DNA of 64,000 bases, from assembly GCF_000970305.1 (NCBI RefSeq), contig NZ_CP009517.1, forward strand, positions 1,922,001 to 1,986,000, given 5' to 3'. Shown here piece after piece: positions 2,582 to 31,874 of this stretch. The stretch is from Methanosarcina barkeri 3 (GTDB lineage: Archaea; Halobacteriota; Methanosarcinia; Methanosarcinales; Methanosarcinaceae). The position numbers and the translations under genes were made by a program. The notes under the pieces were generated by a model, which was given only the letters and a program-made list of their open reading frames with translations, searched no databases and had not been told where the DNA came from. Position 1 is the first letter of the stretch, and every line of letters starts with the position of its first letter.

Positions 2582-2700
2582 TTGATTATACAAAACTATG
2601 AAGAGTCAGAAAAGATTAATCAAATCCGACTTACGAAGAGTCAAATCAAGGTTGACTTACGAAGAACCAAAAAAGATTAATCAAGTCTGACTTATTTTCT
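2582..2700. repeat. Degenerate tandem repeat at 3' end of methyltransferase gene
   Basis: Three to four imperfect units (GACTTACGAAGA plus AAAAGATTAATCAAGT variants). The first unit on the minus strand includes the last codons and stop of the methyltransferase gene. Confidence 0.7.
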
Positions 2701-3397
2701 TTGCAAGAATCATATGCGGAGGCTGGATATACCCTGCTGAATGACCGGACGGATCATTCCGTTCCAAAAAGGCATCATAATCTTCCAAGAACCTCCATGA
2801 AACAGCCTCAAAACCATGGGATTGTGCAAGGGAGGTTATCCTCTCAGGTGTATTGTTTTTCGCAAGGGGCAGGTTCGGCTTAACACCAGAATACAACTCA
2901 TTAAATCTGTCATTACGACTACTTTCCTTCTCTGTCCCGTCAGGGTTCTGGAACCACAAACCATCAATTATCATCATGAGGCCACCGTCTTTTAAAAGCC
3001 TGGAGCACTCATTTATAAACTTGTCCGGTTGAGGCAGGGTCCAGAGAAGATATTTGCTCAAAACGAAATCATACTCTCCATCACATAGAGGAATTTCTTC
3101 TGCATCTCCCTGTACTAAAGAAACATCTACTCCTTTTTTTCGGGCATTTTCCGCTGCTTTTTCAAGCATATTTTCTGACAAATCCACACCGGTTACATCA
3201 TGCCCCATGGAGGCAAGAGAGATTGCAAGAATTCCAGGACCTGTTCCTATTTCTACTGCACGGATTTTTTTATCCGTTAGCAGTATTTCATAAAACAGAG
3301 ATTTCCAAATCTCCATTTCTTCATCCATACATTTGGCATATTCCGTATGATAATCAGAACTTCTGTAGTCCCAGTATTCTAAAATTTTATCCTTCAT
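2681..3397 (-). CDS. Class I SAM-dependent methyltransferase
   Basis: A 238-residue Rossmann-fold methyltransferase counted from MKDKILEYW. Motif I is VEIGTGPG at about residues 48-55, the acidic residue ending strand 2 is in VTGVDLSENML, and a later QGDAEEIP fits motif III. It is a paralogue of the gene at 7725-8417, which starts MKDKITEHW, so the start is set at 3397. The frame stays open upstream to 3523 only because a 7-codon unit has been tandemly copied, giving several alternative in-frame ATG or GTG starts. It sits divergently from the ABC operon. The methyl acceptor is unknown; association with the transporter suggests a small molecule. Confidence 0.8.
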   Translation of the reverse strand: MKDKILEYWDYRSSDYHTEYAKCMDEEMEIWKSLFYEILLTDKKIRAVEIGTGPGILAISLASMGHDVTGVDLSENMLEKAAENARKKGVDVSLVQGDAEEIPLCDGEYDFVLSKYLLWTLPQPDKFINECSRLLKDGGLMMIIDGLWFQNPDGTEKESSRNDRFNELYSGVKPNLPLAKNNTPERITSLAQSHGFEAVSWRFLEDYDAFLERNDPSGHSAGYIQPPHMILAKKISQT

Positions 3398-3523
3398 CTC
3401 TGATATTCCATCTTTCACTTCTAATATTCCATCTGTCATTTCCAGTGTTTCACCTGTCATTTCTAGTGTTTCACCTGTCATTTCTAGTGTTTCACCTGTC
3501 ATTTCTACTGTTCCACCTGTCAT
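3398..3523 (-). repeat. 21-bp tandem repeat, in frame with methyltransferase start
   Basis: Six 21-bp units precede the likely start codon, encoding MTGGTVE, MTGETLE three times, MTDGILE and VKDGISE. They grade into the gene's own first seven codons MKDKILE. Most units carry an ATG and a GGTGA sequence about 10 bases before the next ATG, so each could act as a start with a ribosome-binding site. Confidence 0.8.
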
Positions 3524-4217
3524 TTCTATTCCTCAAACAAACTTGGCACCAAACCGTTTCTATCCGGAATAACATTGTTATCCAGAGCGATATTATGTTT
3601 GTAACATGATTAATTTGGATTAACGGCACCTCATCCCGAATAAAGGCCTTAACCTCTTATATTTGCATAATGATGAGCGAATTCGAAAGCCTGTATAGTA
3701 ATCTGTGATTTGGGTATCTTTTTATAGAATTATATTTTATTGTGTATGAATAAAACAATATGTAGTATTACTATTTATAATAATAATTTGCTTAACTCAT
3801 CATAATTAACAATATATTAATAGTTATGCATTTTATTTCCTAATTTAACTGAGATAAATAACGATTAAGTCATACATCTATTCTGCATAATATTATTCTG
3901 AATGGTAAAAATAAATAAAGTGATCTAAATGGAGGACGCTGCATCCTGAAAAAGCTCTCTTAGATTAAAAACGAGTTATCAAACCCAGGAATGGTGTAGT
4001 TCGGTTAGACCTGCAACATAACATCTGCCAGGTCACATATACGACTTACTGAACAGTTTTTGTTTCAAATAAAATTTGTACTTAATCACACTTACTGGAT
4101 AGGTATGGAATAAAATCACGCACTTTAAATATACAGATATAAAATAAAATCACACACTTTAAATATACTCCTCATATTCTAGTTAAAAATAATGTTAATA
4201 AACTAAATATTTATGTA
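3524..4217. other. AT-rich divergent intergenic region upstream of ABC operon
   Basis: About 690 bases between the methyltransferase and the first binding protein. No ORF or RNA gene is supported. It holds the duplicated promoter-like sequence listed separately near its right end. Confidence 0.5.
4110..4168 (+). promoter_or_regulatory. Duplicated 25-bp promoter-like sequence before first binding protein
   Basis: Two near-identical 25-base direct repeats (4110-4134 and 4144-4168) differ at one base and are spaced 34 bases apart. Each contains ATAAAATCAC followed by CACTTTAAATATA. The TTTAAATATA part resembles an archaeal TATA box, and the second copy lies 50-60 bases before the start codon. 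It could be a tandem promoter or a duplicated operator. No known regulator site is recognised. Confidence 0.5.
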
Positions 4218-5804
4218 TTGGTGTTAATAATGAAATTTAATGCACAAAAAACAAAAGTTTCCATCCCTACTGTTGCTGTAATTCTAATTGTAGCATTGCT
4301 CTGTGCAGGATGTGTTGATACTGGGGAGGCGTCTAAAGAAAAAGTTCTCCGCGTAGTTTTTAATGAAGGTCCTGATACCGGGGGCAGTCTTGATCCTGCC
4401 AACGGCTGGACAGGGTGGTATGTCCATCAGGCAGGCATCTATGAAACATTGTTTTACTACGATGCAGACATGAACCTTATGCCTAAACTCGCATCCGGAT
4501 ACAAACAATTAAACGATACCGAGTGGGAAATTCAGCTCCGTAAGGATGTAACCTTCCACGACGGAACAAAAATGGATGCAGATGCGGTGCTCTTTTCGCT
4601 AAAAAGAGTGCTTGATCCGTCAAACAGCAGGTCATCAGAGTACTCTTTCATTAAAGATGTACGAAAGACTGGTGAGTACACTATTGTCATTGAAACTAAT
4701 GATGTCTATGCTCCATTAATTTCATCTCTTGTAGACCCTGTCATGTCTATAGTCAGTCCTAAAATCGTTGATGCGGACAAACAGCCGGATGGGACCGGTC
4801 CTTTCAAGTTTGTTTCCTTCGAACCGGGTGCAAGCCTTGAAGTCGAAAAGAACCCTAGTTACTGGGACGGCGAGGCCAAAGTTGACCGTATACTCATTCA
4901 GTACAACAAAGACAGTACGGCAAGAACAATGCTGATAAAATCAGGAGATGTCGACATTTCCAGAGATCCTCTCCAGAGCGAGTATTCGGCACTTAAGAGT
5001 AACCCTGATATAAACGTCACTTCCAAAGAAACACTGCGGACTTATTTCCTGTATATAAATGGCGGCAAAGCCCCATTCAATGACACCAGAGTCCGCCAGG
5101 CCCTCTTTTATGCGATCAACCGCCAGGAAATCGTTGATACAGCACTCGAAGGAGTTTCCGGTATACCGGCAAAGGGAATATTCACAAATACCATGCCCTG
5201 GAACGCAAACAATCAGATTGAATCCTACGACTATAACCCTGAAAAGGCTCTGGAACTCTTCGAAGAAGCAGGAATCACGAAAGGCACGGATGGTAAGCTG
5301 TACTACAACGGAAAACCATTCATGATTGACATCCAGACCTATACAAAACGTGCAGCTCTTCAGCCGAGTGCGGAAATCCTCGCTTCACAGCTAGAAAAAA
5401 TTGGCATTACCTCAACTGTGACAATTCTGGACAATGCTGCACTTACGGAAAACGCTGTTGCAGGAACTTATGACCTCTCACTTGCCGCGTGGAGCACTGC
5501 ACCTACCGGGGACCCGGACTACTTCCTCTCAAGCCATTACCTCTCAACAGGCAACTACGCGTCCAAATGGCTCCGCTATTCCAATCCTCAGGTAGATAAG
5601 TGGATTCTTGAAGCAAGAACCGAAACTGACGAAAAGAAACGTGCTGAGCTGTATGATAAAATCCAGATACAGATTCAGAAAGATGCAGTATTACTGCCCG
5701 TTTTCTATGCCAACGAAATTTATGCACTGTCATCAAATGTGACAGGCTTTGAGATGTATCCAAACGAGTATACAATCATCACCAAGGACATCGGATTTGC
5801 ATAA
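4218..5804 (+). CDS. Peptide/nickel-type ABC substrate-binding lipoprotein (copy 1)
   Basis: A periplasmic-type SBP of the family 5 extracellular solute-binding class (OppA/DppA/NikA), 528 residues. A hydrophobic signal segment ends in LCAGC, a lipobox-like site that would leave a lipid-modified Cys near residue 32. Family 5 hallmarks follow: PKLASGYKQLNDTEWEIQLR, then VTFHDGT and PDGTGPFKF. The start is a TTG at 4218 or an ATG at 4230; the paralogue begins MVLRTKL, which matches the TTG form MVLIMKF. It is close to the second binding protein and probably duplicated from it. The ligand (peptide, metal or metal chelate) cannot be read from sequence. Confidence 0.85.
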   Translation: MVLIMKFNAQKTKVSIPTVAVILIVALLCAGCVDTGEASKEKVLRVVFNEGPDTGGSLDPANGWTGWYVHQAGIYETLFYYDADMNLMPKLASGYKQLNDTEWEIQLRKDVTFHDGTKMDADAVLFSLKRVLDPSNSRSSEYSFIKDVRKTGEYTIVIETNDVYAPLISSLVDPVMSIVSPKIVDADKQPDGTGPFKFVSFEPGASLEVEKNPSYWDGEAKVDRILIQYNKDSTARTMLIKSGDVDISRDPLQSEYSALKSNPDINVTSKETLRTYFLYINGGKAPFNDTRVRQALFYAINRQEIVDTALEGVSGIPAKGIFTNTMPWNANNQIESYDYNPEKALELFEEAGITKGTDGKLYYNGKPFMIDIQTYTKRAALQPSAEILASQLEKIGITSTVTILDNAALTENAVAGTYDLSLAAWSTAPTGDPDYFLSSHYLSTGNYASKWLRYSNPQVDKWILEARTETDEKKRAELYDKIQIQIQKDAVLLPVFYANEIYALSSNVTGFEMYPNEYTIITKDIGFA

Positions 5805-6150
5805 ATTTGCAGGAGGAAATGAGGAAAACTGCCGTTTGCAGACAGCAGATTTGATGTTATTTGTAGAAAGGTGTGCTTCCGAGGGGAGATCAGTGAAGGA
5901 TAGATCAGTGAAGGATAAAGCTTACGTGGCGAAGTCCTAAACCATCTCTCCTTTTTACGATAACATGCCGTGAACAATATCTGAAATCAGATGGTGTCTG
6001 AAAACGGATACTTTCAAGGGTTTTTCATTCCGGAAAAGATCAGTGAAGTGAATAATGAATATTGATGTTTTTTTATCCGGGCTGGAAATTACGATATGCC
6101 GTATTACCCAGCCGGATAATTACAATTTTTCTACTGGAAGAGGTATTGAC
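5805..6150 (+). other. Gap between the two binding-protein genes
   Basis: About 350 bases. It contains a short GGAGATCAGTGAAGGATA direct repeat (5882-5920), a strong GGAGG just after the first gene followed at once by an 11-codon ORF whose spacing is too short to trust, and the hairpin listed separately. No further gene is seen. Confidence 0.5.
6073..6119 (+). promoter_or_regulatory. Long inverted repeat in leader of second binding protein
   Basis: TTATCCGGGCTGG (6073-6085) and CCAGCCGGATAA (6108-6119) pair over 12 bases with one bulge around a loop of about 22 bases, followed by a T-rich tract. It lies 31 bases before the start codon and could be a transcript hairpin, an attenuator or a protein-binding palindrome. 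Confidence 0.5.
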
Positions 6151-7713
6151 ATGGTGTTAAGGACAAAGTTATCATTTGCCTGCACGACAGTTTTTTTTAT
6201 TGCAGTCGTCATCTGTTCGGGTTGTGTTCAGACAGAGGGTTCTGAAGAAAAAGTTCTTCGCGTGGCTCTCACAACTGGCCCTGATACAGGAGGAAGCCTT
6301 GATCCTTCTATTTCATGGGAAGGTTGGCCGATGAGAAGAACCGGAATATATGAGACTCTCTTCTCTTACGACGAAAATATGAATCTCCAGCCTGAACTTG
6401 CAACAGGTTATAAACAGTTAAATGATACAAAATGGGAAATTCAGCTCCGCAGGAACGTAACCTTCCATGACGGAACTATAATGGACGCCGATGCCGTGAT
6501 TTATTCCATCAACAGAGTTCTTGACTCCTCAAACAGCAGGTCATCAGAATACTCTTTTATCAAAAACGTCTACAAAACCGATGACTACACAGTCGTCGTT
6601 GAAACAAACGAATCATATGCACCAATTATTCTCATGTTCACAGACACCATCATGTCAATTGTAAGTCCTGATGCAGAAAACCTTGATACCGAACCTGTCG
6701 GAACTGGACCATACAAATTTGTCTCGTTCGAACCGGGTGCCAGTATAGAACTGGTAAAGAATCCTGATTACTGGGGTGAAGCGCCAAAAATTGGCAGAAT
6801 AATTATCCAGTACAGCAAAGATGCTGCTGCAAGAACTCTTCTGCTCAAATCAGGCGATGTTGACATTGCAAGGGATGTCCTGCAAAGCGAGTACGCAGCC
6901 CTTGAAGCTGACCCTGACACTAATATCGTATCCAAAGAAACGCTTAGAACCTACTTCATGTACATTAACGAAGGAAAAGCACCGTTCAACGATGTAAAGG
7001 TTCGCCAGGCACTTAATTATGCAATTGATCGGCAGGAAATCGTTGATACTGCCCTCGAAGGTGTTGCCGGCTCTCCGGCAGTTGGAATATTCCCGGACAT
7101 CATGCCCTGGAGTGCGAACGACAGGATTGAAGCTTACGAATATAACCCTGAAAAAGCCCTTGAACTCTTTGCCGAAGCGGGAATCAAGCAAGGAAATGAT
7201 GGTAAACTCTATTACAACGGTAAACCGTTCACAATTGAAATCCAGACATATACAAAACAGGCAGCGCACCAGCCAATGGCAGAAGTAATTGCCGCCCAGT
7301 TTGAAAAAATCGGCATCACCACTACAATAAAAATTGCCGAAACAAACTCAATTAATGCCGATGCAGTATCAGGAAATTATGACCTTGCACTTTATTCATG
7401 GGGTGTCGCACCTGTAGGAGACCCTGACTATTTCGTATCAAGTCACTTCCTTTCAACCGGAACTTATGCATCCACATGGCTCCGCTATTCCAATCCTCAG
7501 GTTGATGAGTGGATTCTTGAAGCAAGGGCTGAGACAGACAAAGAAAAACGTACAAAACTCTACGACATGATTCAGGAACAGGTCCAGAATGATGCGGTAC
7601 TGATCTCTATCGCATACAAGAAGGAAATTGACGGACTTTCCCCCAATCTCAAAGGTTTTGAAATTTATCCAAACGAATACACATTCATTACAAAGGAAAT
7701 GGAACTTGCCTGA
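6151..7713 (+). CDS. Peptide/nickel-type ABC substrate-binding lipoprotein (copy 2)
   Basis: A 520-residue family 5 solute-binding protein, highly similar along its whole length to the gene at 4218-5804. The signal segment ends in ICSGC, giving a lipobox-like Cys near residue 24. The ATG at 6151 has GAGGT seven bases upstream, which decides the start over an upstream ATG at 6055. Conserved blocks include EIQLRRNVTFHDGT, VGTGPYKFVSFEPGAS and FNDVKVRQALNYAIDRQEIV. It is followed after 11 bases by a methyltransferase, so the two are probably co-transcribed. Two binding proteins for one permease suggest two related ligands. Confidence 0.87.
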   Translation: MVLRTKLSFACTTVFFIAVVICSGCVQTEGSEEKVLRVALTTGPDTGGSLDPSISWEGWPMRRTGIYETLFSYDENMNLQPELATGYKQLNDTKWEIQLRRNVTFHDGTIMDADAVIYSINRVLDSSNSRSSEYSFIKNVYKTDDYTVVVETNESYAPIILMFTDTIMSIVSPDAENLDTEPVGTGPYKFVSFEPGASIELVKNPDYWGEAPKIGRIIIQYSKDAAARTLLLKSGDVDIARDVLQSEYAALEADPDTNIVSKETLRTYFMYINEGKAPFNDVKVRQALNYAIDRQEIVDTALEGVAGSPAVGIFPDIMPWSANDRIEAYEYNPEKALELFAEAGIKQGNDGKLYYNGKPFTIEIQTYTKQAAHQPMAEVIAAQFEKIGITTTIKIAETNSINADAVSGNYDLALYSWGVAPVGDPDYFVSSHFLSTGTYASTWLRYSNPQVDEWILEARAETDKEKRTKLYDMIQEQVQNDAVLISIAYKKEIDGLSPNLKGFEIYPNEYTFITKEMELA

Positions 7714-7724
7714 GGGATTAAAAA

Positions 7725-8417
7725 ATGAAAGACAAAATTACAGAACACTGGAACAAGATTAGTCCGAATTATCGGAAAATGTATCGTGACCACCTTGATG
7801 AAGAGATTCTCCTGATGCAAAAACTCTTTTCAGAGAAGCTGCCAGCTGGTAAGAAACTCAATGTCCTTGATATTGGAACAGGGCCTGGCATCCAGGCATT
7901 TGTTTTTGCCGAAATGGGACACAATGTTACTGCTCTTGACATCTCGGAAGAGATGCTTGCACGTGCAAAAGAAGGGGCAAAGGACCGCAATTTGTCAATC
8001 AGGTTTGTTGCAGGTGACGGAGAAAACCTGCCTTTTGAAGATTGTATGTTCGATATTATCGTAAACATGCACCTTCTCTGGACGCTAACGGACCATGACA
8101 AGTTCTTCAGTGAATGCCTGAGAGTCCTGGTGCCAGGGGGCAGAATTCTTGCAATCGATGGCCAATGGTTCCAGCCAGGATACGTCCCAAACAGAAATTA
8201 CAACCCGGAAGAAAGAAATCATGATGAGTTAATTGAATATCTTCCGCTTTATGACAGTAACTCACCTGAAATGGTTACAGCCATCATGGAAAATAACGGG
8301 TTTTTCGAGGTCTCCTGTAAATCTCTTCCCGAGTATGCAGAGTATATGAAAAGATGCGATCCGGAAGGTTATGACTATTTATCTGTCCCGTATCTTGCCA
8401 CCGGAATAAAACATTGA
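7725..8417 (+). CDS. Class I SAM-dependent methyltransferase (copy 2)
   Basis: A 230-residue methyltransferase, paralogous to the one at 2681-3397. Motif I LDIGTGPG is at residues 48-55, strand-2 acid in VTALDISEEML, then AGDGENLPF, and a shared NMHLLWTL and DGQWFQPGY region that both paralogues keep, which is probably the substrate pocket. It lies between the binding protein and the permeases of an ABC importer, 11 bases after the former. This strict placement makes modification of the transported compound, or of a compound exported to capture it, the simplest idea. No acceptor is identifiable. Confidence 0.82.
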   Translation: MKDKITEHWNKISPNYRKMYRDHLDEEILLMQKLFSEKLPAGKKLNVLDIGTGPGIQAFVFAEMGHNVTALDISEEMLARAKEGAKDRNLSIRFVAGDGENLPFEDCMFDIIVNMHLLWTLTDHDKFFSECLRVLVPGGRILAIDGQWFQPGYVPNRNYNPEERNHDELIEYLPLYDSNSPEMVTAIMENNGFFEVSCKSLPEYAEYMKRCDPEGYDYLSVPYLATGIKH

Positions 8418-8427
8418 GGAATAAAAA

Positions 8428-8524
8428 ATGGAAGACAAAATTGCAGACGACGAATATAACGCATTTTTGCTGGAACATGGTCGGATATGTAGCCCCATAC
8501 CTCGTTTCTACAAGGAAGCGTTAA
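8428..8524 (+). pseudogene. Micro-remnant of a third methyltransferase
   Basis: After the second methyltransferase the sequence restarts with a near copy of that gene's start (ATAAAAAATG, then MEDKI). It then passes directly to DDEYNAFLLEHG, like EDYDAFLERND near the C-terminus of the first methyltransferase. After a frame change it reads GYVAPYLVSTRKR and a stop, matching the end of these proteins (GYIQPPHMILAKK). Some 190 internal codons are missing. In the original frame the stop overlaps the permease start at 8544. Confidence 0.6.
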
Positions 8525-8543
8525 GCTTGTCGAGGGTACTGCA

Positions 8544-9494
8544 ATGCTAAATGATTATTTCATCCGTCGGGTTTTATATCTGGTCCCTGTCCTCATATTT
8601 ATCTCATTCATGAGTTTTTCACTCATCTATATCGCACCTGGCGACCCTGCAGAGATTATGATGACGAGCCCCTCAGGTGGATATGATGAAGCAGCTGTTG
8701 AAGCTTTCCGCATAGCCCACGGTCTTGACCAGCCGTTTTACATCCAGTACTTGAACTGGCTTAAAAATGCGGCTGTCGGAGACTTTGGCTACTCGTACAT
8801 GAGCGAACAGTCGGTATTTGAAACTGTTCTGAATGCATTCGAGAATACGCTGAAACTTTCCGTTCTTGCCCTTGCAATTGCTCTTGTTATTGCTATCCCT
8901 CTCGGCGTAGTTTCAGCTCTGAAACATAATACCATTGTTGACGACACCTGTCGTTTTGGCGCTCTTCTCGGAGTATCCATTCCTAACTTCTGGCAGGCCT
9001 ATCTGATGATAATTTTCTTCTCGGTAATCGTTCACTGGCTCCCAGCATCCGGATTTGGCCACGGGACAGACATCAGCTACATGATTCTGCCGGCGGCTGT
9101 TCTCGGGACAGGGTCAGCAGCCGTAATGATGAGGATGATCCGTTCAAGCATGCTGGATGTCATGGGAAAGGAGTACATCCAGACTGCCCGTGGAAAAGGA
9201 CTATCTGAAAAAATCGTCATTGTCAGGCACGCATTGAAAAACGCACTTGTTCCGGTTATCACGGTGATCGGTCTGTCGATTGGTTTTCTATTAAACGGCT
9301 CGGTTGTTGTTGAGACAATTTTCGGATGGTCAGGCATTGGAAATCTTGTGGTGGACTCAATTCTTTCCCACGACTATATGATGGTACAGGGCTCGGTGCT
9401 CTTTGTTGCCGTCATTTTCCTTCTGATCAACTTCTTTGTAGACCTGGTCTACGTTTGGGCTAATCCGGAGATACGCTATGATAAAACTTCTTAA
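8544..9494 (+). CDS. ABC transporter permease, DppB/NikB type
   Basis: A 316-residue inner-membrane permease with about six helices. The family's N-terminal FIRRVLYLVPVLIFISFMSF and PGDPAE are present. The EAA loop, EYIQTARGKGLSEKIVIVRH near residues 210-230, is where the ATPase docks. The C-terminal segment has VVETIFGWSGIGNLVVDSI, typical of DppB. It overlaps the next permease by 17 bases, so translation is probably coupled. With the following permease it forms the heterodimeric channel of the importer. Confidence 0.9.
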   Translation: MLNDYFIRRVLYLVPVLIFISFMSFSLIYIAPGDPAEIMMTSPSGGYDEAAVEAFRIAHGLDQPFYIQYLNWLKNAAVGDFGYSYMSEQSVFETVLNAFENTLKLSVLALAIALVIAIPLGVVSALKHNTIVDDTCRFGALLGVSIPNFWQAYLMIIFFSVIVHWLPASGFGHGTDISYMILPAAVLGTGSAAVMMRMIRSSMLDVMGKEYIQTARGKGLSEKIVIVRHALKNALVPVITVIGLSIGFLLNGSVVVETIFGWSGIGNLVVDSILSHDYMMVQGSVLFVAVIFLLINFFVDLVYVWANPEIRYDKTS

Positions 9495-10317
9495 AAACCG
9501 ACAGATTGCTCTTTCCCTGATAATTCTCGGCGGGCTTATCTTCATGGCCATATTTGCCGGTTTTTTAGCCCCATATGATTACACGGAAAAAGACCTGCAG
9601 AACCGTCTGCAGCCTCCGTCTTTCGATCACCTTTTCGGGACCGATAACCTTGGCCGCGATATCCTTACAATGGTAATATACGGTGCACGAGCATCACTTT
9701 TAGTCGGGTTTGCGGTTGTTAGCATTTCACTTGTAATAGGAATGACGCTTGGCGTTCTGGCAGGGTATTACGGAGGGTGTCTGGATGAGATTATCATGCG
9801 GCTAACGGACAGTTTCCTTGCTTTTCCGTCAATGTTTCTGGCACTTGCAATTACAGCGTTTTTGGGACAGGGGATGGAAAACATGATGCTTGCTTTAATT
9901 GCTGTCGAGTGGACAGTGTTTGCAAGGGTTGCACGAGGTTCAACACTTGACGTCAAGACAAAAGGCTATGTTCGGGCATCCAGGTGGATTGGTGCTTCAA
10001 ATGCTTATGTAATGATAAAGCATGTTCTTCCCAACATTATATCTCCTGTTTTGATCATGGCATCGCTTGGGATCGGTAATGTGATTCTGGCAGCGGCCGG
10101 TTTAAGCTTCCTCGGACTTGGGGTGCAGCCGTCAACACCGGAATGGGGTGCAATGTTGAATGCAGGCCGTACATATTTCACAACCGCTCCCTGGCTGATG
10201 CTTTTCCCGGGTCTTTTTATAATGATAACTGTTCTTGCATTCAACTATTTCGGCGATGGGTTGAGGGATGCACTTGACCAGAAGATGAAAAATATTGAAC
10301 TTGAAGGGAGGTTCTGA
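9478..10317 (+). CDS. ABC transporter permease, DppC/NikC type
   Basis: A 279-residue permease. The family 5 signature after the first helix is clear: DHLFGTDNLGRDILTMVIYG. The EAA loop is GYVRASRWIGASNAYVMIKH, and a GLSFLGLGVQPSTPEWG block follows, which is diagnostic of the DppC branch. About six membrane segments are expected. It overlaps the preceding permease gene and ends one base before the first ATPase start. Confidence 0.92.
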   Translation: MIKLLKNRQIALSLIILGGLIFMAIFAGFLAPYDYTEKDLQNRLQPPSFDHLFGTDNLGRDILTMVIYGARASLLVGFAVVSISLVIGMTLGVLAGYYGGCLDEIIMRLTDSFLAFPSMFLALAITAFLGQGMENMMLALIAVEWTVFARVARGSTLDVKTKGYVRASRWIGASNAYVMIKHVLPNIISPVLIMASLGIGNVILAAAGLSFLGLGVQPSTPEWGAMLNAGRTYFTTAPWLMLFPGLFIMITVLAFNYFGDGLRDALDQKMKNIELEGRF

Positions 10318-10318
10318 C

Positions 10319-11257
10319 ATGTCTGATGTATTGCTAAAAGTATCCGACGTTTCTGTAACAATCCCGACTGAGCAGGGAACGGTTCACGCGGTTGATGATG
10401 CAACATTTTCGATTAACAAACACGAGGTTTTTTCACTGATTGGGGAGTCAGGCAGCGGTAAGTCAATTCTTGGCCAGGCAATAATGCGGCTGCTTCCTCC
10501 GAATGCGATGTTTTCCGGCAAAGTGGAACTTGAAGGTATGGAAATTTCAGCTCTTTCCGAGAAGGAAATGCAGAAAGTCCGCGGCAAAATGGTTTCATCA
10601 ATTGCTCAGAACCCATATCTTGCAATGAACCCCGGAATAAGGGTTGGCACTCAAGTTGCAGAGCCAATGCAGGCACATCTTGGAATGAGTAAAGAAGATG
10701 CAAAGTCAAGAACATGTCAGGCTCTGAAGTATTTCGATATCATCCCTCCTGAAGTGCGGGAAAGGGAATACCCGTTCCAGTACAGTGGCGGAATGTTACA
10801 AAGAGCAATGGTTGCAATGGGAACGGCTGCAGATCCTGAACTCATTATCGCTGATGAACCGACAAAAGGCGTTGATGTGCTTAAGAAGCGCAATATTGCA
10901 GCAATTTTTCAAAAGGTTGCCTCTAAAGGCTGTGCGTTTCTTTTAATTACGCATGATGTAGGTTTTGCCCGAGCGATGTCAGACAGAATCGCGGTAAACT
11001 ATTGCGGACAGATTATAGAGATCGCAGAGAAGGAACCGTTTTTCAAAGAACCTTTGCATCCGTATTCACAGGCACTTTTAGACGCGGTGCCGGAGCGTGG
11101 CATGCACCCGATTCCAGGCCCGTCACCTTCGATGATTGAGGTGCCGGAAGGTTGCAGGTTTCATCCTCGATGTCCGCATAAAACGGACAGGTGCCTGAAA
11201 AATCCGCCGGTTGTGGAAATAAACGGAAGATGTGTGAGGTGCTGGATGTATGCTTAA
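10319..11257 (+). CDS. ABC transporter ATPase, DppD/NikD type
   Basis: A 312-residue ATPase. Walker A GESGSGKS is at residues 42-49, the signature YSGGMLQRAMVAM at about 155-167, and Walker B LIIADEP near 176. The residues after Walker B read TKGVDV where most relatives have TTALDV, a variant D-loop. The C-terminal oligopeptide/dipeptide domain carries GCRFHPRCP and further Cys residues. The ATG at 10319 follows GGGAGG by eight bases and is preferred over an upstream TTG. It overlaps the second ATPase by eight bases. Confidence 0.92.
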   Translation: MSDVLLKVSDVSVTIPTEQGTVHAVDDATFSINKHEVFSLIGESGSGKSILGQAIMRLLPPNAMFSGKVELEGMEISALSEKEMQKVRGKMVSSIAQNPYLAMNPGIRVGTQVAEPMQAHLGMSKEDAKSRTCQALKYFDIIPPEVREREYPFQYSGGMLQRAMVAMGTAADPELIIADEPTKGVDVLKKRNIAAIFQKVASKGCAFLLITHDVGFARAMSDRIAVNYCGQIIEIAEKEPFFKEPLHPYSQALLDAVPERGMHPIPGPSPSMIEVPEGCRFHPRCPHKTDRCLKNPPVVEINGRCVRCWMYA

Positions 11258-12185
11258 GGCAGATAATCTGCATTATGTTTACACCTCAGGATTGATTAAA
11301 ACAGTCAAAAAGACAGCTGTCTGCGGCGTTGAGCTTGAGATCTTTCCGGGTGAAACGGTGGCTGTTGTCGGTGAGTCGGGGTGTGGTAAATCAACGCTTG
11401 CAAAGATGCTTGTCCAGCAACTTGAGCCGGTTTCCGGGGAAGTGTTTTTTAACGGGACGAAATTGACCGGAATGAGCTGGAAGAATCTTCGAAAGTTTAT
11501 GGGGAAAATCCAGCTGATTCCCCAGAATCCGGATGATGTGGTTGATCCTAGATGGACGGTTGAAAAATCGGTTGCCGAGCCATTTATCATTTGCGGAGGT
11601 TTTTCCAGAGAGGAGATTTCAACAAATGTAGATGCCCTGTTTGCAGAAGTAGGGCTTTCTGCGGAACACAAGACCCGATATCCTCACGAGCTTTCAGGAG
11701 GGGAACTGCAGAGGGTTGTAATTGCCAGAGCACTTGCTCTGAAGCCTGAGTTACTGGTCTGTGACGAAGCGACCTCGATGCTTGATGTGTCGGTGCAGGC
11801 TTTTATTGTGACGATGCTCAAAGAGATTCAGATGAAACGCGGTCTCAGCCTGGTGTTTATTACACACGACCTGGAGGCGGCGAAGGCTGTTTCCGATCGG
11901 GTACTGGTGATGTATGCAGGTGAGATTGTTGAGGAAGGGGCGGATGTGTTTGATCGACCATTGCATCCTTATACGCGTGCTCTCCTGGATGCAGCACGGT
12001 ATATGTCACTTGAGGTTGTGGTGCCTGAGGAGATCGGAGAACTTCCTTATGGTTTTTCAGGTTGTTCCTACTACAGATTATGCCGTGAGAGAATGGATGC
12101 GTGTAAAAAGCCACAGAAATTACAGGATGTCTCAGGTAGATTGGTGAGGTGCTGGAAATCAAAATGCGGCAGTCCAAAAAACTAA
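11250..12185 (+). CDS. ABC transporter ATPase, DppF/NikE type
   Basis: A 311-residue ATPase, the last gene of the operon. Walker A GESGCGKST is at residues 41-49, the Q-loop is IPQNP, the signature LSGGELQRVVIARAL and Walker B LLVCDEATSMLD. The C-terminal Cys-containing segment (CSYYRLCRERMDACKKP) is the family's oligopeptide/dipeptide C-terminal domain. The start ATG overlaps the end of the previous ATPase. Tandem repeats begin directly after the stop. Confidence 0.92.
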   Translation: MLKADNLHYVYTSGLIKTVKKTAVCGVELEIFPGETVAVVGESGCGKSTLAKMLVQQLEPVSGEVFFNGTKLTGMSWKNLRKFMGKIQLIPQNPDDVVDPRWTVEKSVAEPFIICGGFSREEISTNVDALFAEVGLSAEHKTRYPHELSGGELQRVVIARALALKPELLVCDEATSMLDVSVQAFIVTMLKEIQMKRGLSLVFITHDLEAAKAVSDRVLVMYAGEIVEEGADVFDRPLHPYTRALLDAARYMSLEVVVPEEIGELPYGFSGCSYYRLCRERMDACKKPQKLQDVSGRLVRCWKSKCGSPKN

Positions 12186-12370
12186 TCTAATGAACAACTA
12201 AACTGATAAACAACTAAACTGATAAACAACTAAACTGATAAACAACTAAACTGATAAACAATTAATCTAACGCACAACTGATCTGATAAGCAACTGATTT
12301 GATAAGCAACTGATCTGATAAGCAACTGATCTAATAAACAACTGATTGATAAACAACTAATATCATAAAT
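12186..12370. repeat. Tandem repeat array, 16-bp unit
   Basis: About ten units of AACTGATAAACAACTA and decayed variants (GATCTGATAAGCAACT) start at the stop codon of the last ATPase. Units are best preserved near the gene. No ORF is supported in 12186-12580. Confidence 0.85.
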
Positions 12371-25444: not shown

Positions 25445-25981
25445 AATTTTTGTTTGAATGTCTAGATTCGTGTATTAAAAGTAATGATGGCATAAATAAC
25501 CTGGAGCCAGGCGTACAATTACTGTTACTGACACAGCCGATAAGCAAGTAGTAAACGAAATAACATCAAAAATTTTAAAGACTAACTGATTCACAAACTA
25601 ACTGATTCACAAACTAACTGATTCACAAACTAACTAGTTCACAAACTAACTAATCCATCAACTAACTAATCCATCAACTAACTAATCCATCAACTAACTA
25701 ATCCATCAACTAACTAATCCATCAACTAACTAATCCATCAACTAACTAATCCATCAACTAACTAATCCATCACTTTAAAGTCAAGAAACTTCCGTAATTT
25801 CCGAGCAGGCTCTAGCTCTGTTGAGAACAGAGGAGCCGAAACAGAGATAGGAAGAGTAAAAAAAGCCAAAGAAGAGAGCTCATTTAGGGTTCCCAGACTC
25901 GGAATATTACCTGCAGCTATAGGCCTGTTAGGAGTTTATGCCGTTAAGAAGATAAATCAGGCTAAAAGAATTAAAGTGTAA
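25445..25981 (+). pseudogene. Decayed secreted or surface protein gene
   Basis: Protein-like fragments on the plus strand are broken by frame shifts and a repeat array. SNDGINNLEPGV near 25480 is followed, in a shifted frame, by TITVTDTADKQVVNEI and a stop, resembling Ig-like or PKD surface repeats. After the repeat, 25787-25981 is open and ends VPRLGILPAAIGLLGVYAVK then KINQAKRIKV and a stop, a C-terminal membrane anchor with basic tail. There is no start codon. The 16-bp repeat lies in the middle. Confidence 0.4.
25580..25775. repeat. Tandem repeat array, 16-bp unit
   Basis: About eleven units: first AACTAACTGATTCACA, then ATCCATCAACTAACTA. The later units are identical to one another, indicating recent expansion. 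The rest of 25126-26214 shows only the decayed gene fragments listed. Confidence 0.9.
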
Positions 25982-29931: not shown

Positions 29932-30062
29932 CATTCAGTATCTATTCAGTATCTATTCAGTACCCATTCAGTATCTATTCAGTATCCATTCAGTATCCAT
30001 TCAGTATCCATTCAGTATCCATTCAGCACCCATTCAGTACCCATTCAGTACCCATTCAGTAT
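29932..30062. repeat. Tandem repeat array, 11-bp unit
   Basis: About twelve units of TATTCAGTATC or CATTCAGTACC. A 71-codon frame through it simply translates the repeat and is not taken as a gene. Confidence 0.9.
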
Positions 30063-30295
30063 CGTTTTTCAGAGTTCCAGGTTCGAAAGATATATTCTAT
30101 TTTAAGTTTATCTTTACAATGAAGCTCACCTAACCGTAAGAAGCTATTGATTTTTAAACATAAATCCCTTTTTCTAGCAGCTTGGAATTTTCCTATCGGT
30201 TTGGGAAATCTGGTATGATGGTTAATATGGGAAACAGAACTTTCCACTAAGTAAGGATTCGTAAAAAGAGCTACTTTTAGAGAGAAACTATCCTG

Positions 30296-31580: not shown

Positions 31581-31730
31581 TACGCATCAGAACAATTACA
31601 TTTCTACATTTTAAGGCGAAAGTTGCTGACACTTTATTAGGAAAGCCAGTTCCATAAAGGAAAATCTAGATATTTAATAAAGAGAATACTGCATAAATCT
31701 AACTGTATGATTATAAATGTGAAAGGTTAA

Positions 31731-31874
31731 TGTGTTCAACTTCACGTCCATAAACGAGTACTGTCAATGTATTCACCTTCACGTTCATAAACGAGTACTG
31801 TCAATGTATTCACCTTCACGTTCATAAACGAGTACTGTCAATGTATTCACCTTCACGTTCATAAACGAGTACTG
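31731..31874. repeat. Tandem repeat, 37-bp unit
   Basis: Four head-to-tail units, each with TTCACGTTCATAAACGAGTA then CTGTCAA and TGTATTCACC. There are no spacers, so it is not a CRISPR array. It lies about 125 bases before the NlpC/P60 gene. The rest of 31344-31996 shows no gene. Confidence 0.9.

What the first reader, a model, noticed from the sequence alone, without database searches (positions are those of the whole stretch)
3390..3523. Start codon and first seven codons of a gene amplified upstream as a tandem repeat
Six 21-base units encode variants of MKDKILE, the gene's own first seven residues. They keep frame and bring repeated ATG and GGTGA elements. Changes in unit number would alter start choice or N-terminal length without breaking the gene, so expression could be tuned or phase-variable.
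Basis: partly seen in the sequence, partly recalled or inferred. Interest (0 to 1): 0.7.

Follow-up and report, generated by a model that had tools for sequence, protein, structure and literature searches.

The report
Start codon copied into N-terminal repeat
In a methane-producing archaeon, a 21-base stretch holding a methyltransferase gene's start codon has been copied in tandem six times, lengthening the protein by 42 residues in steps that related species still show; it looks like a frame-safe copying accident rather than an expression switch.

Summary
A minus-strand SAM-methyltransferase gene (2681-3523) of a satellite-rich Methanosarcina carries six diverged 21-bp copies of its first seven codons ahead of the native MKDKILE. 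Orthologues preserve intermediate stages: 0 extra units in eight intact genomes, one or two 18-bp units in the barkeri-like group, then 1, 4 and 6 21-bp units towards this species. An rpoB tree makes the seven array-bearing genomes one clade (100/99), so there was one founding duplication followed by growth. In every array-bearing genome whose start can be read, one Shine-Dalgarno motif (GAGG, 7-8 nt spacer, the genome's modal spacing) lies before the FIRST ATG. The internal GGTGA motifs sit 10 nt from the next ATG (genome mode 4-6), and the sister species lacks them. All known length changes are multiples of three. Best explanation: slippage duplication whose left breakpoint falls between SD and ATG recreates an intact initiation site each time, so the N-terminus grows without harm; the added tail is predicted disordered. 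A second, independent case (deaminase, MSDN doubled) occurs in the same clade. Unit number does vary between species, but phase-variable or start-choice tuning is not supported. Within-species variation could not be tested.

The parts
2681..3523 (-). SAM-dependent methyltransferase gene (280 aa as extended; 238 aa from the native start)
   Evidence: ORF; Methyltransf_11 5.2e-25, residues 90-185; orthologues in 15 other Methanosarcina genomes, one of them a fragment
3398..3523 (-). Tandem array of six extra 21-bp units, each a copy of start codon plus six codons
3503..3523 (-). Unit 1, MTGGTVE; first ATG, the likely translation start
3482..3502 (-). Unit 2, MTGETLE (holds AGGTGA)
3461..3481 (-). 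Unit 3, MTGETLE (identical to unit 2)
3440..3460 (-). Unit 4, MTGETLE (one synonymous change)
3419..3439 (-). Unit 5, MTDGILE (identical in DNA to the single extra unit of G022)
3398..3418 (-). Unit 6, VKDGISE (begins with GTG)
3377..3397 (-). Native start unit, MKDKILE, conserved in orthologues without an array
3531..3534 (-). Shine-Dalgarno core GAGG, 7 nt before the first ATG
   Evidence: present at 7-8 nt in 13 of 14 orthologues whose start can be read

Best explanation
This is an N-terminal repeat extension made by repeated tandem duplication of the start-codon region. Step 1 (inferred): in the ancestor of the barkeri/vacuolata/spelaei group, slippage between the short repeat AGAA just before the ATG and the AGAA that ends codon 7, 21 bp apart, duplicated ATG-AAA-GAT-AAA-ATN-TTA-GAA. 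Step 2 (shown by sequence): because the left breakpoint lies between the Shine-Dalgarno core and the ATG, the SD keeps its 7-8 nt distance to an ATG after every duplication, and because 21 is a multiple of three the old start becomes an internal in-frame Met. Each duplication therefore recreates an intact initiation site and only adds seven residues. Step 3 (shown): the array then grew (1, 4, 6 units) and diverged, with some units losing one codon. Step 4 (inferred): translation starts mainly at the first ATG, giving a mostly disordered 42-residue tail of little consequence on a normal methyltransferase. The array is a tolerated by-product, not a switch.
For: Graded orthologues: 0 extra units (G018, G005, G019, G002, G014, G004, G027, G025), 1x18 bp (G028, G029), 2x18 (G013), 1x21 (G022), 4x21 (G016, M. 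spelaei), 6x21 (window). rpoB tree: the array-bearing genomes are one clade, 100/99, with zero-unit G018 next outside. GAGG at 7-8 nt from the first ATG in 13 of 14 orthologues, with or without array; GAGG spacers across 364 genome ORFs peak at 6-8 nt. All length changes seen are multiples of three and no unit contains an in-frame stop. The native ATG has only background anti-SD pairing (-3.4 against a median of -3.1 kcal/mol). Second independent case in the same clade: a deaminase with MSDN doubled (12 bp, SD-like GAGAG run kept) in G000 and G020, diverged to MSANMSDN in G016, single in 20 other Methanosarcina. The genome is extremely rich in tandem arrays (PMC6749651, M. vacuolata 406 satellites). 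AF2: residues 1-32 have pLDDT under 50, helix from 31.
Against: No protein or transcript data. Internal units 2-4 pair better with the anti-SD (-8.4 kcal/mol) than the true leader does (-5.6), so some internal initiation is possible despite poor spacing. Unit-to-unit pN/pS is about 0.5 (0.19 over 0.37, pairs not independent), which leaves room for some constraint on the tail. Which strand slipped and the exact breakpoints are inferred. The methyltransferase tree alone is poorly rooted. The AF2 alignment was shallow (9 sequences; the other four models averaged pLDDT 54-64).
Confidence: 0.77

Rival explanations
1. One reading: the array is a tuning device. Extra ATG and GGTGA copies act as additional ribosome-loading sites, so unit number sets expression or the mix of N-termini.
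For: Units 2-4 place AGGTGA (full anti-SD complementarity, -8.4 kcal/mol, beyond the 10% tail of -6.6 for ATGs in the window) upstream of starts 3-5; unit number differs between species.
Against: Spacer is 10 nt where the genome's GGTGA sites cluster at 4-6 (1 of 23 at 10 nt). The sister M. spelaei array has AGATGA/AGATGG instead, so the motif is not conserved. One unit has GTG, and the native start has no SD. No frame switching is possible with 18- or 21-bp units.
Confidence: 0.1
2. The extension is a selected functional tail: repeated MTGETLE segments serve as a docking, localisation or stability element of the methyltransferase.
For: Frame and absence of stops are kept in all array species; unit pN/pS about 0.5; in Borg elements N-terminal amino-acid repeats are proposed as interaction tails (PMC9879509).
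Against: Length and sequence change quickly between sister species (6 against 4 units; MTG/MTD); residues 1-32 predicted disordered; absent from the paralogue in all 15 relatives examined and from most orthologues.
Confidence: 0.1
3. The array is untranslated 5' leader: translation starts at the native ATG and the open frame upstream is incidental.
For: The native start is the conserved one in zero-unit species.
Against: The only SD-like motif at the right spacing precedes the first ATG and moves away from the native ATG as units are added; pairing before the native ATG is at background; all units and length changes keep frame without stops, whereas intergenic arrays in this genome have periods divisible by three only 36% of the time (98 of 271).
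Confidence: 0.03

Closest known systems
Satellites / coding tandem repeats of Methanosarcina (PMC6749651)
   Same: Short in-frame tandem arrays in a genus, and probably a species, listed as very satellite-rich among the archaea surveyed
   Different: That survey does not mention start codons; here the unit includes the start codon and the array grows between SD and native start
Amino-acid tandem repeats (aaTRs) of Borg elements, including N-terminal aaTRs of Sm proteins (PMC9879509)
   Same: Fast-evolving, frame-keeping repeats that give a disordered N-terminal tail on a conserved core
   Different: ATG is reported as one of the codons most depleted in Borg aaTRs; here nearly every unit begins with ATG because the unit IS the start region. 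Chromosomal gene, not an extrachromosomal element
De novo tandem duplications in a beta-lactamase gene (PMC4169377, abstract)
   Same: De novo short in-frame tandem duplications that change a protein
   Different: There the duplications lie within the enzyme's omega loop and alter substrate range; here at the start codon
Simple-sequence phase variation near bacterial start codons (e.g. licA-type; from memory)
   Same: Repeats close to the start, several ATGs
   Different: Those units are not multiples of three and switch frame; these keep frame

Membership tests
Coding tandem repeat (VNTR/satellite) in a prokaryotic gene | Head-to-tail units within an ORF | tested here: met
Coding tandem repeat (VNTR/satellite) in a prokaryotic gene | Unit length a multiple of three, frame kept | tested here: met
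   21- and 18-bp units in all array-bearing species
Coding tandem repeat (VNTR/satellite) in a prokaryotic gene | Unit number varies between related genomes | tested here: met
   0 to 6 extra units across species
Coding tandem repeat (VNTR/satellite) in a prokaryotic gene | Unit number varies among strains of one species (true VNTR) | not testable with these tools
   one genome per species held
Phase-variable gene (simple sequence contingency locus) | Change in unit number shifts frame or switches expression | tested here: not met
   18/21-bp units cannot shift frame; SD-to-first-ATG spacing does not depend on unit number. Expression itself was not measured
Multiple alternative translation starts | Correctly spaced SD before each start | tested here: not met
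   Only the first ATG has one; internal GGTGA at 10 nt against mode 4-6
Class I SAM-dependent methyltransferase | Methyltransf_11 domain with SAM-binding GTGPG motif | tested here: met
   EIGTGPG at residues 91-97, with G93, T94, G95, P96 and G97 invariant; Foldseek hits to class I methyltransferases

The most novel reading that the evidence does not exclude
Start-codon regions form a special class of duplication target in satellite-prone genomes: a break between SD and ATG makes a self-renewing start, so N-termini grow stepwise as a one-sided, low-cost route to new disordered tails, and the internal AGGTGA-ATG units also give some alternative initiation, so that unit number mildly tunes N-terminal isoforms.
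Probability: 0.15. Interest if true: 0.6.

Novelty: new variant of a known kind. Interest (0 to 1): 0.38.

Why it matters
It is a clear graded series (0, 1, 2, 4, 6 units) of how an N-terminal extension arises from the gene's own start region, with a simple reason why it survives: each duplication leaves the SD-to-ATG distance unchanged. A second independent case in the same clade suggests a general route to new N-termini, and a source of mis-called start codons, in repeat-rich genomes.

Tried and rejected
Array elsewhere in the genome: none. Same expansion in the flanking paralogue (window 7725): none in the 15 relatives examined. Other genes with amplified starts: in 1.64 Mb (36% of the genome, 1,174 ORFs of 100 aa or more) nine hits, of which I accept two, this gene and the MSDN deaminase; most of the rest are low-complexity ORFs made of satellite, two are weak four-codon matches. 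Rooting with the methyltransferase tree: the outgroup is too distant (branches near 2), so rpoB was used instead. PDB relatives: generic class I methyltransferases; no substrate assignment. NCBIfam: no model over its cut-off among the 25 best shown. Literature: no report of amplified start codons found in eight searches; the library is open-access only.

Full report
What is there. The gene lies on the minus strand, 2681-3523, and encodes a class I SAM-dependent methyltransferase (Methyltransf_11, E 5.2e-25, residues 90-185). Ahead of the native start unit MKDKILE (3377-3397) stand six more 21-bp units (3398-3523): MTGGTVE, MTGETLE three times, MTDGILE, VKDGISE. Near-copies of the unit occur nowhere else in the 4.56-Mb genome. 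The genome is a Methanosarcina of the barkeri/vacuolata/spelaei group; M. spelaei is the closest named relative (94%). The size (4.56 Mb) and repeat density fit M. vacuolata, reported with 406 satellites, the highest number in the part of the survey table I read (PMC6749651); that identification is an inference.

Background. In 844 kb sampled (window plus 39 stretches) TRF found 333 arrays, 271 of them intergenic; 49 of 62 arrays inside ORFs have periods divisible by three, against 98 of 271 between genes. Tandem duplication is therefore frequent in this genome, and coding arrays are filtered for frame.

The series. Orthologues show every stage. Eight genomes with a complete start have one ATG and no extra unit (G014, by its size M. 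acetivorans, is one). G028 and G029 have MNEILE before MKDKILE; G013 has MNEILE-MKDKLE; G022 has one MTDGILE, identical in DNA to unit 5 of the window and to unit 1 of M. spelaei; M. spelaei (G016) has four units; G020 has at least two and a fragment of a third, next to an assembly gap. An rpoB tree places these seven genomes in one clade (support 100/99) with zero-unit G018 next outside, so one founding duplication followed by growth is the simplest history. The methyltransferase tree agrees on the groups but its root is not reliable.

Which start is used. Before the first ATG, GAGG at 7-8 nt is present in 13 of 14 orthologues with a readable start, with or without array; across 364 ORFs of this genome GAGG spacers peak at 6-8 nt. 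The genome's 16S-type 3' ends read GGATCACCTCCT, so both GAGG and GGTGA can pair. The internal AGGTGA of units 2-4 pairs better (-8.4 against -5.6 kcal/mol) but lies 10 nt from the next ATG, whereas GGTGA sites upstream of genes cluster at 4-6 nt (16 of 23; one at 10). M. spelaei has AGATGA or AGATGG at these places. The native ATG has only background pairing. Hence the first ATG is the likely main start and the GGTGA motifs look incidental. Some internal initiation cannot be excluded.

How it arose. In the array clade the leader ends ...TAGAA before ATG and the native unit ends TTAGAA, so AGAA recurs at a distance of 21 bp (sequence). Slippage between such short repeats would duplicate exactly ATG through GAA. 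This is inference; de novo short tandem duplications are documented for a beta-lactamase gene (PMC4169377, abstract). The important point is position: with the left breakpoint between SD and ATG, every duplication restores the same SD-spacer-ATG arrangement and demotes the old start to an internal Met. Later codon losses (MNEILE, MKDKLE) also kept the frame.

A second case. A scan of 1,174 ORFs in 1.64 Mb (36% of the genome) gave two genes whose start codon lies in a convincing tandem unit: this one and a deaminase (L137:3065-3550; PF00383) that begins ATGTCAGATAAT ATGTCAGATAAT. In 20 other Methanosarcina genomes the segment is single (MSDN, MSEK and similar); it is double only in G000, G020 and G016, where one copy in G016 has already diverged to MSAN. 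A GAGAG-type leader precedes the first ATG. So the event has happened twice in one clade, at unrelated genes.

What it does. AlphaFold2 on a shallow alignment gives residues 1-32 pLDDT under 50 and a helix from residue 31, so most of the tail is predicted disordered. Unit-to-unit pN/pS is about 0.5, which neither proves nor excludes weak constraint. The paralogue at 7725-8417 has no array in the 15 relatives examined. I conclude that the tail is tolerated rather than needed (inference).

The statement that unit number can change without breaking the gene is right and is borne out between species. The step to phase variation or start tuning is not supported: the frame cannot switch, and the well-spaced initiation site is independent of unit number.

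Limits. One genome per species; no transcript or protein data; gene calls in the sample are simple ORFs; the sample is 36% of the genome; the literature library is open-access only.

Noticed in passing
L137:3065-3550 (G000:C1:593065-593550): Deaminase gene (PF00383) whose first four codons, start included, are perfectly doubled (MSDNMSDN); single in 20 other Methanosarcina, double only in the three nearest genomes.
   Followed up: yes
window 2681-12185: Conserved cluster: this methyltransferase divergent from two family-5 solute-binding proteins (best NCBIfam model for the first is NikA-like but under its cut-off), a second methyltransferase, two permease-like and two ATPase-like genes of a nickel/peptide-type ABC transporter (the last four read from sequence only). 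The paired methyltransferases keep their places in many Methanosarcina, which hints at a transported methylated ligand or metallophore.
   Followed up: partly
L109:10431-10883, L109:14006-14332, L129:828-1160: Predicted ORFs made almost wholly of satellite sequence (LFLLLL, FTLFI, FSFVFPL repeats); probably not genes, but likely to be annotated as such.
   Followed up: no
window 12176-12369, 25581-25772, 29932-30063, 31729-31874: Long arrays of 11-37 bp units, a sample of the extreme satellite load of this genome.
   Followed up: no
L036:5774-5997 (G020): A 224-base assembly gap that cuts the array in a metagenome-derived genome; repeat arrays at starts may be under-counted in drafts.
   Followed up: partly
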